A DNA stretch of 64,000 bases from [Synechococcus] sp. NIES-970 (GTDB taxonomy: Bacteria; Cyanobacteriota; Cyanobacteriia; Cyanobacteriales; MRBY01): assembly GCA_002356215.1 (NCBI GenBank), contig AP017959.1:2310195-2374194 (forward strand), in the 5' to 3' direction. A program made the position numbers and the translations under genes. Below are positions 45,565 to 51,146 of the stretch, piece by piece. The first letter of the stretch is position 1, and each line of letters starts with the position of its first letter. Under the pieces are notes generated by a model. That model had not been told where the DNA came from, ran no database searches, and worked only from the letters and a program-made list of their open reading frames with translations.

Positions 45565-46221
45565 ATGAGTTCAAAATTACCATTATTGGTTTTGATTACC
45601 CTCTTGGGGGGACTGGGGATCATCTGGCTACAAAACAGTCAGCCTCTGAGTTTGGTGTTGTTTAACCAGGCATTGCCCCTCGCCTTACCCCTGGGGATCT
45701 GGTTAATCGCCGCAGTGTTACTTGGACTACTGCTGAGTTTGATTTTGCAACTGTTGCTCCGGGGAGGCAATCCCAGTGTCAGAGGTGATCGCCCCAATCC
45801 CCGCCTCGAACGCCTCAAGCAACGTCCCCCCCGGGAGCCAGACCGCCGCACTGGCCGCTCTGATTGGGAGCGGAGTCGCGCTAACTATGATTGGACGGAC
45901 AAAGAACTAGAGGCCCAGGATGAAGAAAGCTGGGATATCGAATCTCCCCCTAGCCAGCCGACCCGACCAAAGGCGCCCCCCCCAGCCAGCTCAGCCGAGC
46001 CAGAAATCCGTCCCCAGCCGAAACCCCAACGCCCCCGACCGACACCTCCTGTGACCCCTGCGCCCAGCTCGACACCAAGTCCTGCACCCAAGCAGCAGCC
46101 CAAGGCGGCAGATTCGGGAGCAGTTTATGATGCGGACTACCGGATTTTAACGCCTCCCTATGACCCCGACGCCACAGATCCCGGTGGGGTTGATCCAAAT
46201 GAAGACGAAGAATGGATTTAG
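45565..46221 (+). CDS. LapA-domain-like membrane protein with Pro-rich tail
   Basis: 218 residues. Two N-terminal membrane segments (about 5-22 and 40-65) match the small LapA/DUF1049 type. Then comes a charged region and a Pro-rich disordered part (about 125-180, with repeats like RPQPKPQRPRPTPP). It ends in a conserved-looking acidic tail (VYDADYRILTPPYDPD). The tail may be the functional part. It follows the TPR-like gene by 18 bases. The exact family is uncertain. Confidence 0.6.
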   Translation: MSSKLPLLVLITLLGGLGIIWLQNSQPLSLVLFNQALPLALPLGIWLIAAVLLGLLLSLILQLLLRGGNPSVRGDRPNPRLERLKQRPPREPDRRTGRSDWERSRANYDWTDKELEAQDEESWDIESPPSQPTRPKAPPPASSAEPEIRPQPKPQRPRPTPPVTPAPSSTPSPAPKQQPKAADSGAVYDADYRILTPPYDPDATDPGGVDPNEDEEWI

Positions 46222-46272
46222 ACAGAATGATTCTGTTAGGCTAAAACGGCTCTATTTGAGAAATTGATTCCT

Positions 46273-46686
46273 ATGGATATTTCCCCTGAATTGCTGGCGG
46301 CGATCGCCCTCTTAAAAGAAAAAAGTTGTGCAAGCACCCCTGTTATTGAGTCCGCAGCAGAGCGAGAAGCCCTCCGTCACAATTTACGTTTGGCTTGCCA
46401 GGCGGCAGATTGGGAAAATATTGGCATCTGCGCCGATGATGTGGCAGAAGCAGTGACGACCCTAGAGCAATATCTCAAGGGCCTTGGCTATGGTGCGCCA
46501 GAAAATATCGACACCACCGCCTGGGGCGATCGCCCGATTTACCTAAAATTTAATACCCAGACGATGAACCATTATTTCGATGAATATGTGGGGGACTACC
46601 GGGGAGTGCTGGTGGCGCTCCAGTCTCCCGAATTCGAAATAGAAGGGATTTATGGCCATTTTCCTCTAGATTTGTTTGCAGAATGA
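46273..46686 (+). CDS. DUF1824 family protein
   Basis: 137 residues. The pattern WGDRPIYLKFNTQT, YFDEYVGDYRGVLVALQSPE and IYGHFPLDLF matches the cyanobacterial DUF1824 family of unknown function. It is a small soluble protein. I took the ATG three codons inside the longest frame (which begins with TTG). It is 51 bases after the Pro-rich gene and 44 before the next one, so the four genes from 45.1 to 47.4 kb may form one transcript. Confidence 0.8.
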   Translation: MDISPELLAAIALLKEKSCASTPVIESAAEREALRHNLRLACQAADWENIGICADDVAEAVTTLEQYLKGLGYGAPENIDTTAWGDRPIYLKFNTQTMNHYFDEYVGDYRGVLVALQSPEFEIEGIYGHFPLDLFAE

Positions 46687-46730: not shown

Positions 46731-47417
46731 TTGAGAAAGAAACAGTGTTTTGGTTTTTTGGGTAGTATTTTGGCGATTACCTGGCCTCTGCCCAGCCTAG
46801 CCCAGCCCCTCAGCCCTGATCAGCTGGATTTATCCCCAGAAATTTTTGAACAGAGTCCGGTGCTCCAGCGCTGGAGCCAGGAAATCCCGGATGTGCGCCA
46901 AAATATCCGCCACGAGCCAAGTTTTCGCACCCGTTGGCGGTTGGGCTATGTCCAATTTCCGAGTAATGGTCAACAGGGGGGACTGGGCCTTGGGGTCGAG
47001 GATCTGTTTCTCACAGAAACGTTGCCCCTCACCCTCAGCGCTGAAGGTCACACCAGTTTTAATGGCGATCGCTCCCAAGTCGCCGCCCGCGCCAACTATT
47101 ATCTATTGCCCCTCGGCAGCCGTTTTAACATCGCCCCGACCCTGGGTTACCAAAGCTTTTCGGGAGAAGATTACCGCCGCGCAGGGCTAGAAGTGGGGGC
47201 AAAAATGCAGTTGAGCCTTTCCCGTTCCGGTGCTTCGACTCTGAGCCTTAGTCAACAGTTTGTCAACCTCGGAACAGCAGAAGAAATGGGGGTCACTACC
47301 CTTGGTGCTGGTTATGCTTTTTCTCGGCAATGGCGCGCAGCTACGGAAATCCAAAAGCATAATTCCACCGCGGCGAAGGAAAGTAAGGTGGGATTTTTCT
47401 TGGAGTGGATGCCCTAG
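46731..47417 (+). CDS. Secreted beta-rich protein, unknown function
   Basis: 228 residues starting with TTG; GGGGAA lies eight bases upstream and no later ATG leaves the signal peptide intact. The signal peptide ends near SLA-QPLS (about residue 24). The mature part has alternating patterns (TRWRLGYVQFP, GLGLGVEDLFL, SQVAARANYYLLP, ASTLSLSQQFVNLG) and ends in an aromatic residue region (FFLEWMP). This suits an outer-membrane beta-barrel, perhaps of eight to ten strands. No family is recognised. Confidence 0.6.
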   Translation: MRKKQCFGFLGSILAITWPLPSLAQPLSPDQLDLSPEIFEQSPVLQRWSQEIPDVRQNIRHEPSFRTRWRLGYVQFPSNGQQGGLGLGVEDLFLTETLPLTLSAEGHTSFNGDRSQVAARANYYLLPLGSRFNIAPTLGYQSFSGEDYRRAGLEVGAKMQLSLSRSGASTLSLSQQFVNLGTAEEMGVTTLGAGYAFSRQWRAATEIQKHNSTAAKESKVGFFLEWMP

Positions 47418-47490: not shown

Positions 47491-49779
47491 CTATTCTTCT
47501 TCTGCTGAATCACTCCAAGTCGATTCTGGGTCTTGCGCCTCATCTTCGGTTTTGGTGTTTTTGGCGATCGCCAGGTCGATTTGTTGGCGGTAATAATCGA
47601 CGCTCTTGACCTCCACTTCGACGGTATTCCCCAAGCGGTAGGCGATGCGATTTTTGCGACCCACCAGGCAGCTGTGGCGAGCGCGGTATTCGTACCAGTC
47701 GTCCTTCAAGGAGCTGACATGCACTAGACCTTCCACCAGTAGATCTTCGATTTCCACAAAGAAACCATAGGACTGCACCCCGGTAATCAAGCCCCGGAAG
47801 GTATGGCCAGTGTGGGCCTTCATTTTTTCTGCCTTTTGCAGACCCTGGAGGTCTTTTTCGGCGTCATCGGCGATTTTTTCTTGATCATTGAGCTGCAAAA
47901 TTAAGCCCGCGATGGATTCTTCGAGTTCTGTCTGGATGGGTGTAGGCAAAACATTCCAATTGACTTGGTCATGGCAGGTGCTACTGCCAAGATTAACCCC
48001 TACTTTGACACGGCTGGAGCGGCGATCGCGTCCTTCTGAAAACACAAGCTTCAGAATCCGTTGCATCACCAGATCGCTATAGCGCTGACCCGGACAACAA
48101 ACCCGGGCGTACCCATCATTGTAAGCAAGGCCAAAATGCGGATGGGGGTGTGTGCCATAACGGGGGACGTCAAGGGTTTCTTGCAATAGATAGTTCAGGA
48201 TTTTGGTCATGTCCGTCTGACTAAACTCCTGGATAAAGTGCTGGTAATCGTGGGGCAGCAGTTCTTCTTCCGATTCGAGTTTGAGCTTCAGGTTGAGGTT
48301 GTTGCCCAGCTTGATCAAATTTTCAAGACTTTCAAAATCAGGCTTTGCCTGGTAGCAGTAAATGGCGGGTAATCCCAGGGCGATCATGTGTTGGGCCACA
48401 GCGCGACCGGCCAGAATCATCACCTCAGCTAAGAGCGATCGCACGGGCAGCGTCGGCGAGACAATCATTGTTCCAAAGCGCCCTTCATCTTTAAAGGCAG
48501 AGGTCACTTCCGGTAAAGAAATCTGGAAGCCCCCCCGTTGGAGGCGCTGGGCCTTGATCAAGGGGCTGAGGTTGAAAATCAGGTCATTGAGGAGGGCCGT
48601 CACATCTACCAGATCTTGATCGGCGGGCTCATCACTGCTGAGGAGATGCTGCACTTTTTGATAACTGAGGCTGTGGTCAACCTGGATCACACTGGGGGCA
48701 ATTTCAAATTCTGCGACATTGCCCTGGTCATCGAAGGTCAAAAAGATGGACATCGTCAGGCGATCGCTGCCCGGCCGTAGTTCAATTTTTTCTTGAAGCT
48801 CTGAGGGGAACAGGGGAATCGTCATCTGCCCCAAAAAGACTGCTGTACCATGCTTTTTCGCCCAGCGATCGAGCACCCCTTGGGCCGGCACATATTCCGC
48901 CACATCAGCTAGGTGAATCCCTAATTGCCACTGGCCTGCTTCTGTTTTTTGGAGGGTAAAGGCATTTTCAATAAAGGTTTCATTGCCCGCGCTCAGATGC
49001 AGCTCATCTTCGATGGTCACCGTTAATTGGTCGCGCAAATCACGCCGTTTTTTGAGAACCGTCTTCGTGAGCTTGCTGGGAATATCCTTCACCGCTGCCA
49101 GCACCTCTGCCGGAAATTGCCGCAATAAATCGTGCTTACAGCACACAATATCCGTATCTGCCGCTGCCTCTGCATCACTCCCCAGCACCTTTGTCACGGC
49201 CCCCTGGGGGAGATATTGGGCGATCGGATATTGCACAACCGACACATGGACTAAATGATCTAATGCCGCCTGGAGCCGCGCTTCTTCATCCTTTAGTTCG
49301 AGTTCAAATAACAGGCGATCATCGAGGGGCACTGCCCGGAATCCTTCGTCTTTTTGGACAACCCGTGCCAGGAGCGAGGGATTGGCCCGCTCTAAAATAA
49401 GACGTACTATTCCTTCAGGCGATCGCCGCCGACTGCCCTCCTTGACGATTTTTACTAACACGCGATCGCCATTCCAAGCATTACTAAGATAACTTTCACG
49501 GATATAGATATCCTCCGCATCCTCAGAATCTTGGATCGCAAAGCAAAAGCCTTTACTCGAACACCGTAGCTTTGCCTCCACCACATCCGTTTCTGGCACC
49601 CGGCGGTATTTACCCCGTTCTTTCGCTAAAATCTCAGCCCGCTCCAATGCATCCAGGATAATCTGGAGCTGTTCTGCATCTTCCTCAGAATGGCACTCTA
49701 GCTTCTTTTCGAGGAATTTACCGGCAACTAATTTGTCATCTGTAAAGAAAGACAGCAGTGTGGCGATTGAAAAATCCAT
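47491..49779 (-). CDS. RNase II/R (RNB)-family protein with S1 domain, active site degenerate
   Basis: 762 residues. Cold-shock-like N-terminal domains, an RNB domain (about 245-580) and a C-terminal S1 domain (about 660-745: GHTFRGLITGVQSYGFFVEI). The fold is clear (GIHLADVAEYVP at 287-298). However, the catalytic motif that reads TID-x5-D-x-DDA in RNases II and R is here TIEDELHLSAGNETFIENAF (residues 255-274). The four catalytic Asp positions are not conserved, and the usual RRYPDL reads QRYSDL. Exonuclease activity is doubtful; it may bind RNA only. In Synechocystis a second RNB protein, Zam (acetazolamide resistance), exists and this could be its relative. AAGGA lies before the ATG. Confidence 0.82.
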   Translation of the reverse strand: MDFSIATLLSFFTDDKLVAGKFLEKKLECHSEEDAEQLQIILDALERAEILAKERGKYRRVPETDVVEAKLRCSSKGFCFAIQDSEDAEDIYIRESYLSNAWNGDRVLVKIVKEGSRRRSPEGIVRLILERANPSLLARVVQKDEGFRAVPLDDRLLFELELKDEEARLQAALDHLVHVSVVQYPIAQYLPQGAVTKVLGSDAEAAADTDIVCCKHDLLRQFPAEVLAAVKDIPSKLTKTVLKKRRDLRDQLTVTIEDELHLSAGNETFIENAFTLQKTEAGQWQLGIHLADVAEYVPAQGVLDRWAKKHGTAVFLGQMTIPLFPSELQEKIELRPGSDRLTMSIFLTFDDQGNVAEFEIAPSVIQVDHSLSYQKVQHLLSSDEPADQDLVDVTALLNDLIFNLSPLIKAQRLQRGGFQISLPEVTSAFKDEGRFGTMIVSPTLPVRSLLAEVMILAGRAVAQHMIALGLPAIYCYQAKPDFESLENLIKLGNNLNLKLKLESEEELLPHDYQHFIQEFSQTDMTKILNYLLQETLDVPRYGTHPHPHFGLAYNDGYARVCCPGQRYSDLVMQRILKLVFSEGRDRRSSRVKVGVNLGSSTCHDQVNWNVLPTPIQTELEESIAGLILQLNDQEKIADDAEKDLQGLQKAEKMKAHTGHTFRGLITGVQSYGFFVEIEDLLVEGLVHVSSLKDDWYEYRARHSCLVGRKNRIAYRLGNTVEVEVKSVDYYRQQIDLAIAKNTKTEDEAQDPESTWSDSAEEE

Positions 49780-50480
49780 GCAAGACTATCCTTTTCGTTA
49801 GAAAATAAAGTGAAACGACAATAGCCCACCAGCAGTAAAGTCCTGACCCATCGTTCGCCGCTGTCCCTAAACCTAAACAGCCAACGGGCCTATCTTGCTA
49901 GTGGAAAACGCCACAAATTCCTAGGGTTCCAAGGCTGACTGATCAAAACACTGTCTTCTCCACAAGGACGTCTTACTTCATGAGCGAAGCAAAACCATGG
50001 AGGAACGAGGCCTTTGGCACCTCAGGAGTTGACAAGTTCACAAACACACAGTCGCAAAGCTTGAATAAACCGATAGGAAGGAAACACCCACACCAAACCC
50101 TCAAGAGGTCATTACGTTTAGGCAACGGCGATGGTGAGGTATTTTTTTTCTGAAACTGACCCAAAAAGACGTGTTTCAGGGGGGAAGGAGGGCTGCCTGT
50201 GGCTAAGCAAACCCAATAGGGAGAAAAGCAATGCGATTATGGGAGGATCGTCCGATACAATCGTGGCTAGAGCAACGGTGAAATCTAATTTGCTTAGCCA
50301 ATAGACGTATATGTTGACTATCTTTTCACAATGCTTCCTAGATATTGTACCTTCTCGGGGACATTCCCACTACGGCCACCCCTTGATTTGCGCCTCAATG
50401 CTACTAACTTGGGGAAACTAAAGGGTACAATTGCACTGAATGAAATTTTGTCATTGTTTGTTATTCGTTACTTAGGTTCC
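49780..50480. other. Long gene-poor interval with an inverted repeat
   Basis: About 700 bases between the divergent RNB-family and unknown two-domain genes. No reading frame is convincing: a 57-codon frame (49980-50153) and an antisense one of 63 codons have no good ribosome-binding site or recognisable protein. The right half holds a 101-base element bounded by a 12-base inverted repeat (separate entry). The last 150 bases extend the downstream gene's frame, but without similarity. No tRNA or known small RNA was recognised. Confidence 0.6.
50200..50300. repeat. 101-base element bounded by a perfect 12-base inverted repeat
   Basis: TGGCTAAGCAAA at the left end is the exact reverse complement of TTTGCTTAGCCA at the right end. 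Between the arms, CGATT...AATCG and GGATCGTCC give a nested stem. No T-run follows. It could fold as an RNA, or be a remnant of a small mobile element. No known family is recognised. Confidence 0.45.
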
Positions 50481-51146
50481 ATGACACCAGAGATTTTTCG
50501 GCAGCGATATCCCCAGGGAGGCTTGATCAGTGAATTGGCGGCGATCGAGCATGGCCAGTTTATTGTGCGGGTGGTAGTGGAGCTTGAGGGGCGACAGTTG
50601 GCCAGTGGCCTTGCGGCAGCGCCTTCGGTGGAACAGGCCGAAGATCAAGCAAGAATCCGTGCTTTGAATTTGCTAGGCACGGTGATGATTTCGTCCCCAG
50701 ACAAGCCCAAACAAGCGGCAGCACCCCCTCCTGAAAGACCTGCTCCGGAGAAGACAATGACAGCACCATTTATTGAATCGCCACCGATTACTACTGCTGC
50801 TGCTACTCCAGCAACAAAAACACCACCAGTGCCCAACCCGGCGCCAGTGGCCCAAGCCCCAGAAACATTACCGCTTCAGATCGAGGCGATGGTGATCAAT
50901 TCGCCATCAAAAGTTGAGCCAGAATTACCGCCAACACCGGTATCGCTAGATCCAGAGGAAGCATTGGATTTTTCAGAGATTATTGCCCGCAGTGATGTGG
51001 AACTGAAGCGCTTGGGATGGTCAAGTGAACAGGGACGCACCTACCTACTCGAAACCTATGGCAAGCGATCGCGCCAGCTTCTGTCTGACGAGGAGCTCCT
51101 GGCGTTTTTACGCTACCTTGAAGCCCAGCCGACTCCTGGTTCCTAG
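50481..51146 (+). CDS. Two-domain protein of unknown function
   Basis: 221 residues from the ATG beginning MTPEIFRQRYPQ; the open frame extends 50 codons upstream but with no domain pattern. Residues 1-65 form a compact domain (LISELAAIEHGQFIVRVVVE, then EDQARIRALNLLG) that resembles a double-stranded RNA-binding fold in outline. A Pro/Ala/Thr-rich linker covers about 75-145. The C-terminal 60 residues (DVELKRLGWSSEQGRTYLLETYGKR, split by conserved charged residues) look like a separate folded domain. I do not recognise the family; RNA or DNA binding is a guess. Confidence 0.65.
   Translation: MTPEIFRQRYPQGGLISELAAIEHGQFIVRVVVELEGRQLASGLAAAPSVEQAEDQARIRALNLLGTVMISSPDKPKQAAAPPPERPAPEKTMTAPFIESPPITTAAATPATKTPPVPNPAPVAQAPETLPLQIEAMVINSPSKVEPELPPTPVSLDPEEALDFSEIIARSDVELKRLGWSSEQGRTYLLETYGKRSRQLLSDEELLAFLRYLEAQPTPGS

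What the first reader, a model, noticed from the sequence alone, without database searches (positions are those of the whole stretch)
47491..49779. RNase II-family protein with its catalytic aspartates missing
Seen: the RNB fold and S1 domain are intact, but the stretch where RNases II and R have TID-x5-D-x-DDA reads TIEDELHLSAGNETFIENAF, and the RRYPDL motif is QRYSDL. Known: the four Asp residues (201, 207, 209, 210 of E. coli RNase II) hold catalytic metals, and loss of single ones (209) abolishes activity. Inference: this is an RNA-binding pseudo-exonuclease. It may correspond to the cyanobacterial Zam protein.
Basis: partly seen in the sequence, partly recalled or inferred. Interest (0 to 1): 0.62.

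Follow-up and report, generated by a model that had tools for sequence, protein, structure and literature searches.

The report
Cyanobacterial Zam, a dead RNase-R-like protein
This gene encodes Zam, a known cyanobacterial relative of the RNA-degrading enzyme RNase R whose cutting site has decayed while its RNA-binding-type domains and a redox-sensing cysteine pair stayed almost unchanged, so it most likely regulates RNA decay instead of doing it.

Summary
The minus-strand ORF 47491-49779 (762 aa) has CSD1, CSD2, RNB and S1 domains. The four catalytic Asp of E. coli RNase II are E257, F269, E271 and N272 here, and Arg500 is Q565. The genome has one other RNB gene, whose site reads TIDDESTLEIDDG. 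The protein is Zam: its CSD1 cysteines are C73 and C79, the numbers given for PCC 7002 Zam, which Thomas et al. 2022 (PMC9145284) already described as a redox-regulated RNB protein with a degenerate site. The core finding is therefore known.

Added here: among 198 distinct Zam proteins none keeps four Asp, 56 keep three, 84 keep none; Arg500 decays with them; CSD1 and S1 are near-invariant while RNB is loose, the reverse of the paralogue Rnb. One open conflict: by gene order, Anabaena Alr1240, cited in a review as an active RNase II that binds and stimulates RNase E, is the Zam orthologue, and close relatives read T/V/E/N at the four positions. Either a decayed site still cuts RNA or the reported activity has another source. 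This is directly testable.

The parts
47491..49779 (-). zam gene, 762 aa RNase II/R-family protein
49405..49572 (-). CSD1 (OB_RNB), residues 70-125; C73 codon 49561-49563 and C79 codon 49543-49545
   Evidence: Pfam; C73 in 196 of 198 and C79 in 194 of 198 Zam rows
49111..49323 (-). CSD2, residues 153-223
   Evidence: Pfam
48040..49047 (-). RNB domain, residues 245-580
   Evidence: Pfam; fold match to RNase R
48964..49011 (-). degenerate metal site, residues 257-272 (E257, F269, E271, N272 in place of D201, D207, D209, D210)
   Evidence: alignment
48070..48087 (-). QRYSDL, residues 565-570; Q565 in place of catalytic Arg500
   Evidence: alignment
47566..47814 (-). S1 domain, residues 656-738, 36 of 83 columns at least 95% identical among 198 Zam
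   Evidence: Pfam

Best explanation
The gene is zam. It descends from an RNase R-type exonuclease whose RNB domain no longer holds the two metal ions needed to hydrolyse RNA, and it is kept for a non-catalytic job carried by its conserved CSD1 and S1 OB-folds. The most likely job is that of a redox-switched accessory factor of RNA decay: the C73/C79 pair in the RNA-facing loop of CSD1 is oxidised or reduced with the photosynthetic redox state, and this changes how the protein engages RNA and/or RNase E. Steps shown here: gene identity, loss of the catalytic residues, near-invariance of CSD1, S1 and the Cys pair, purifying selection, an Rnb paralogue with an Asp-bearing site. Steps shown by others: redox-dependent mobility of Zam and need for both cysteines in vivo (PMC9145284); Alr1240 binding and stimulating RNase E (cited in PMC10989914). 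Inferred: lack of catalysis in this protein and the redox-to-RNase E link, a model that Thomas et al. also propose.
For: Catalytic residues replaced. CSD1 cysteines at exactly C73 and C79 as in PCC 7002 Zam. 0 of 198 distinct Zam proteins has four Asp and 84 of 198 have none, while D201, D209 and D210 are present in 46 of 46 Rnb rows, 5 of which are second copies of the same genes (copies seen by coordinates). Columns at least 95% identical: Zam CSD1 29/56, S1 36/83, RNB 15/336; Rnb CSD1 7/48, S1 4/62, RNB 80/289. R500 is kept in 56 of 56 rows with three Asp, 41 of 42 with two, 7 of 16 with one, 37 of 84 with none, as expected of a decaying site. dN/dS over the whole gene is 0.017-0.042 within the genus, so it is not a pseudogene. 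The predicted fold (mean pLDDT 90) matches RNase R (8cdu_C, Z 42.5) and also yeast Ssd1, deposited as a pseudonuclease (7am1_A, Z 35.3). Anabaena RNase II was again found in an RNase E co-precipitate (PMC10783494, passages).
Against: A review cites Alr1240, by gene order the Anabaena Zam orthologue, as able to degrade unstructured RNA. Position 209 is still acidic in 168 of 198 Zam (110 Asp, 58 Glu), so some constraint on the old site remains. RNA binding was not detected for PCC 7002 Zam. No activity was measured here. Both cysteines are lost in the two sampled members of family f29 (L192, L210), and C79 in L175 and L226, so the redox switch is not universal.
Confidence: 0.62

Rival explanations
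1. Zam is a weak but real nuclease with a remodelled site: Glu at position 209 with Glu, Asn or Thr nearby holds a single metal ion, and the reported activity of Alr1240 is genuine.
For: Alr1240 is cited as an RNase II degrading unstructured RNA and gene order makes it the Zam orthologue; position 209 acidic in 168 of 198 Zam; 56 of 198 keep three of four Asp; the site tolerates some change, since Glu stands at position 207 in 44 of 46 Rnb rows, a family with a proven active member, Synechocystis RNase II (PMC3293843; whether that protein has Glu there was not checked).
Against: Close relatives of Alr1240 read T/V/E/N at the four positions. In E. coli RNase II, D209N alone abolishes activity (stated in PMC3293843). 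Purified PCC 7002 Zam showed none, though it aggregated. The replacing residues differ between families, unlike a conserved new site. In the sampled rows of families f14, f26, f29 and f34 no Asp or Glu stands at position 209.
Confidence: 0.15
2. Zam is an Ssd1-like RNA-binding pseudonuclease that holds specific mRNAs on its OB-fold surface and controls their translation or stability, without needing RNase E.
For: Same fold as Ssd1, which the PDB entry calls a pseudonuclease (7am1); CSD1 and S1 near-invariant; Arg, Lys and two Phe of the RNA-contacting L12 loop conserved as described by Thomas et al., taken here (my mapping) as R72 198/198, F78 188/198, F80 196/198 and K76 at least 97%.
Against: No RNA binding detected for PCC 7002 Zam. 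Structural likeness to active RNases R is stronger than to Ssd1. No target RNA is known to me.
Confidence: 0.2
3. A decaying gene on its way to loss.
For: Loose RNB domain; five of 290 genomes show only weak matches that fit Rnb alone.
Against: dN/dS 0.017-0.042; clear matches in the other 285 of 290 class genomes (my reading of the E-values); near-invariant CSD1 and S1; deletion phenotypes (PMC9145284).
Confidence: 0.02

Closest known systems
Zam (A1543 of Synechococcus PCC 7002, Thomas et al. 2022, PMC9145284; sll1910 of Synechocystis PCC 6803 by its acetazolamide phenotype, PMC10989914)
   Same: Domain order, redox cysteines C73/C79, degenerate RNB site, coexistence with an Rnb, closeness to RNase R.
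   Different: Nothing essential found. The Zam sequences of these two strains were not identified by name here; residues at the decayed site differ between lineages, and the window protein has also lost Arg500.
RNase R (E. coli rnr, B. subtilis RNase R 8cdu)
   Same: Fold and full domain order (Z 42.5 to 8cdu_C); of the references tried, the best sequence relative outside Zam.
   Different: Four catalytic Asp and Arg500 intact in E. coli RNase R; TIGR02063 cut-off not reached (440.6 against 597.85 bits).
Cyanobacterial Rnb / RNase II (sll1290 type; G000:C1:343614-344483)
   Same: Same superfamily, same genome.
   Different: Active-site Asp conserved (46 of 46 rows at D201, D209, D210); conservation sits in RNB, not in CSD1 and S1.
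Yeast Ssd1 (7am1, pseudonuclease)
   Same: RNase II-family fold and, by its title, no nuclease activity; Z 35.3 over 616 residues.
   Different: Eukaryotic; no sign of common descent beyond the RNB superfamily; its RNA-recognition mode is recalled, not tested here.
Alr1240 of Anabaena PCC 7120 (cited as RNase II binding RNase E, PMC10989914)
   Same: Zam orthologue by gene order in close relatives, as Thomas et al. also state.
   Different: Reported as an active exonuclease. The PCC 7120 sequence itself was not obtained here; relatives L113, L114 and L151 were read.

Membership tests
Zam | Two cold-shock domains, RNB, S1 | tested here: met
   Pfam
Zam | Invariant CSD1 cysteine pair C73/C79 | tested here: met
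   numbering as in PMC9145284
Zam | Catalytic Asp lost | tested here: met
Zam | Separate Rnb in the same genome | tested here: met
   670 aa, TIDDESTLEIDDG
Zam | Nearer to RNase R than to RNase II | tested here: met
   BLASTP 239 bits to E. coli RNase R, 59 to RNase II
Zam | Redox-active disulfide needed in vivo | not testable with these tools
   shown for PCC 7002 in PMC9145284
Active RNase II/R exoribonuclease | Asp201, 207, 209, 210 | tested here: not met
   E, F, E, N
Active RNase II/R exoribonuclease | Arg500 | tested here: not met
   Q565
Active RNase II/R exoribonuclease | RNase R equivalog score (TIGR02063) | tested here: not met
   440.6 bits, cut-off 597.85
Active RNase II/R exoribonuclease | Measured 3'-5' exonuclease activity | not testable with these tools
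   none here; conflicting reports for orthologues
Ssd1-type pseudonuclease | RNase II-family fold | tested here: met
   7am1_A Z 35.3, rmsd 4.4, 616 aligned
Ssd1-type pseudonuclease | Alternative RNA-recognition surface | not tested
   feature recalled; no model with RNA was made

The most novel reading that the evidence does not exclude
The RNase II/R site can be rebuilt without its canonical aspartates: Zam proteins with Glu at position 209 (such as Alr1240 and the window protein) remain weak, perhaps redox-gated 3'-5' exonucleases, and the family as a whole is a natural series from three Asp to none that catches an exonuclease in the course of becoming a regulator of RNase E.
Probability: 0.12. 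Interest if true: 0.72.

Novelty: already known. Interest (0 to 1): 0.36.

Why it matters
Zam is found in nearly all sampled cyanobacteria and, in PCC 7002, is needed for normal phycocyanin synthesis and photosystem balance (PMC9145284); its molecular job is not established. The census shows that the catalytic site decayed in a graded, lineage-specific way while CSD1, S1 and the cysteines were kept, so the retained function is very probably not catalysis. It also exposes a conflict: the Anabaena protein cited as an active RNase II and RNase E activator is a Zam whose close relatives lack all four aspartates. One clean assay would decide whether the reported activity is real and what a Zam contributes to the cyanobacterial degradosome.

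Tried and rejected
Decaying pseudogene: rejected, dN/dS 0.017-0.042 within the genus and wide retention.

Alignment error hiding the Asp: rejected for the site itself. Flanking TI and the hydrophobic-x-x-A frame are shared, and three-Asp Zam rows (for example TIDGPDARVIDDAL in L241 against TIDGEDARDFDDAV of E. coli RNase R) have the same length as RNase R and fix the register. Several acidic columns conserved in the Zam RNB domain (D247, D292, D304, E452, D569) are conserved in Rnb and in both E. coli enzymes too. Others are acidic in over 90% of Zam but not of Rnb (for example D431, E432, D511); whether any of these lies near the old site in space was not tested.

Anabaena Alr1240 being the Rnb paralogue, which would have removed the conflict: rejected. 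The unit alr1240-alr1241-alr1242 (PMC10287535), alr1242 = 221 aa hypothetical (PMC2823733) and alr1244 = shikimate kinase (PMC4005646) match the order zam, UbiX family, 221-aa ORF, shikimate-kinase-like ORF in L151 and L147, and its first three genes in L149; the Rnb neighbourhoods L148, L150 and L152 show no such order (families, where the shikimate-kinase models match at E 2e-49 but under their cut-offs). The next ORF in L151 is argB; that PCC 7120 argB is alr1245 is recalled, and one search found no paper for it.

A single ancestral loss of the site: not decided. Two-way counts give 3 changes for D210 and 8 for D209 on a tree of 79 Zam; if Asp cannot be regained, the same tree implies 10 and 11 losses, but deep forks are weakly supported, E. 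coli RNase R is a very long branch, and the rooting is unsure. I claim graded, lineage-specific decay, not a number of events.

Origin in non-photosynthetic sister classes: one search found PF00773 in 70 of 146 phylum genomes, 5 of them outside the class. One of those five (L256) is nearer to E. coli RNase R than to Zam (191 against 73 bits); the other four were not examined further.

Rfam: no match in the window at gathering thresholds.

The site was placed by sequence alignment only; the predicted structure was compared with PDB chains as a whole, and its coordinates at the site were not inspected. The loop 261-270 has mean pLDDT 62.

Row choices: the 123 Zam rows are distinct ORFs of at least 600 aa with Zam as best of four references; 75 more were added to the fixed alignment (80 regions, 5 duplicates dropped), giving 198. 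The set is not a random sample: it favours genomes listed high, plus families chosen for divergence and 12 named Nostocales genomes with some of their genus. The 46 Rnb rows include five second copies (L138-L142); the short Rnb-type frames (398-452 aa) of six f14 genomes were not fetched, and L213 was left out as too distant. Tree rows were thinned to 79, each under 72% identical to those kept before it. In one search synonymous sites are near saturation in two of the three pairs.

Full report
What is there. The minus-strand ORF 47491-49779 encodes 762 aa with OB_RNB 70-125, CSD2 153-223, RNB 245-580 and S1 656-738. It scores as an RNase R relative but under the curated cut-off (TIGR02063, 440.6 of 597.85 bits). 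By BLASTP it gives 239 bits to E. coli RNase R, 72 to the Rnb of its own genome and 59 to E. coli RNase II. The genome holds one other RNB gene, 670 aa, G000:C1:343614-344483, whose site reads TIDDESTLEIDDG.

The missing aspartates. An alignment of 123 Zam, 46 Rnb, and E. coli RNase II and R (mapping) puts E257, F269, E271 and N272 at D201, D207, D209 and D210, Q565 at R500, F315 at Y253 and A451 at E390, while E641 matches E542. That the four Asp and Arg500 make the active site, and that D209N alone abolishes activity, is stated in PMC3293843 (passages).

Identity. Thomas et al. 2022 (PMC9145284; outline, abstract and parts 1-4 of 6 read) describe Zam: an RNB-family clade grouped with RNase R, with two CSDs and S1, a degenerate site, and two invariant CSD1 cysteines, C73 and C79 in PCC 7002, which are redox-active and needed in vivo. 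The window protein has C73 and C79 at the same numbers. Their purified Zam showed no nuclease activity or RNA binding (data not shown, aggregation-prone).

Census. With 75 further sequences there are 198 distinct Zam proteins. Asp at all four positions: 0 of 198; three: 56; two: 42; one: 16; none: 84. By position: 201 has 58 Asp and 27 Glu; 209 has 110 Asp and 58 Glu; 210 has 99 Asp and 45 Asn; 207 is Asp in one row (L026) and Glu in five. R500 is Arg in 141 of 198, and falls from 56 of 56 (three Asp) to 41 of 42, 7 of 16 and 37 of 84. Rnb rows have D201, D209 and D210 in 46 of 46 and Glu at 207 in 44 of 46. The pattern is stable within families but differs between them: f25 DVDD in 27 of 36, f35 DADD in 24 of 25, f28 KSDD in 22 of 25, f14 with PLP or PLL after the first letter in 12 of 12, and Glu-Asn at 209/210 in 27 of 39 rows of families f1-f13, the window's order (counted from its table). 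Thomas et al. [quoted passage not shown] The census agrees for the full set of four, but shows that over a quarter of this (not random) sample keep three, always including D209.

What is conserved instead. Columns at least 95% identical: CSD1 29 of 56, S1 36 of 83, RNB 15 of 336 in Zam; 7 of 48, 4 of 62 and 80 of 289 in Rnb. C73 is kept in 196, C79 in 194, R72 in 198 and W102 in 197 of 198. The exceptions are L175 and L226 (C79 to Gly) and the two f29 members L192 and L210, which lack both. Thomas et al. saw the same inversion on their own set. dN/dS over the whole gene is 0.017-0.042 between three members of the genus (synonymous sites are near saturation in two of the three pairs).

Distribution. 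All 290 sampled class genomes give a match to Zam at E 0.001 or better, but in G003, G058, G088, G098 and G278 the best match is weak (E 2e-15 to 3e-22), and a family search there finds only Rnb-type genes. G088 is a single contig, so the absence there is probably real; Thomas et al. found Zam in every genome they searched.

Structure. AlphaFold2 on 39 Zam sequences gives mean pLDDT 90.0 and pTM 0.87, with residues 261-270 in the active-site loop at 62 and residues 745-762 under 50. Best solved relatives are RNases R (8cdu_C Z 42.5, 627 aligned, rmsd 4.3); yeast Ssd1, titled a pseudonuclease, has Z 35.3. The fold is intact; fold alone does not tell enzyme from pseudoenzyme.

The conflict. The review PMC10989914 (passages) says that Alr1240 of Anabaena PCC 7120 degrades only unstructured RNA, binds RNase E and enhances its cleavage, citing Zhou et al. 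2020, which is not held and which I know only from recall and citations. A later paper found RNase II again in an RNase E co-precipitate (PMC10783494, passages). Thomas et al. state in passing that this protein is Zam. I tested that by gene order: alr1240-alr1241-alr1242 is one unit (PMC10287535, passage), alr1242 has 221 aa (PMC2823733, passage), alr1244 is shikimate kinase (PMC4005646, passage). In the close relative L151 the order is zam, a UbiX-family gene, a 221-aa ORF, a small opposite-strand ORF, a shikimate-kinase-like gene, argB; L147 agrees. Zam in L147 is 52% identical to the window protein, and Zam of L113 (the same gene) and L151 reads TITGINSDTKVIENA, T/V/E/N at the four positions. 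So a protein cited as an active RNase II appears to lack all four canonical Asp. Contaminating host RNase II or R would explain it, as would real residual activity; I cannot tell which.

Mechanism. Most likely Zam is an RNase R turned regulator: catalysis was eroded, OB-folds and the cysteine switch were kept, and it acts on RNA decay through RNA and/or RNase E under redox control. The link to RNase E rests on the Anabaena reports; the redox control on PCC 7002.

Verdict. Observation confirmed; interpretation mostly right but already published, with RNA binding unproven and nuclease loss contested by a report on an orthologue. Added here are the graded census, the co-decay of Arg500, the exceptions to the cysteine pair, and the gene-order evidence that sharpens the Alr1240 conflict.

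Noticed in passing
window 50331-51146 (+): A 271-aa ORF without a Pfam match lies divergently upstream of zam and has a homologue in the same place in L147 (60% identity over a 60-aa C-terminal stretch). By eye, comparing the listed (capped) matches with zam places, it lies beside zam in at least 15 of the 146 genomes searched.
   Followed up: partly
window 45565-46221 (+): A 218-aa ORF related (27%, E 6e-10) to the 221-aa ORF of the Trichormus zam neighbourhood (alr1242 type), so part of that neighbourhood persists near zam here, while the ORFs between them (46264-46686, 46731-47417) are not UbiX.
   Followed up: partly
L137, L212, L213, L214, L215: Third RNB-family proteins of about 460-660 aa in some cyanobacteria, only distantly related to both Zam and Rnb by BLASTP.
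   Followed up: no
L192, L210 (family f29): Zam proteins without the C73/C79 pair, a natural test of the redox-switch model.
   Followed up: no
G088, G098, G058: Genomes of families f40 and f39 with only one RNB gene found, of Rnb type, so Zam appears absent.
   Followed up: partly
same-phylum rows: Of 146 phylum genomes 76 have no PF00773 match; the 20 of these that are listed all lie outside the class, so many non-photosynthetic sister lineages may lack the RNB family.
   Followed up: no
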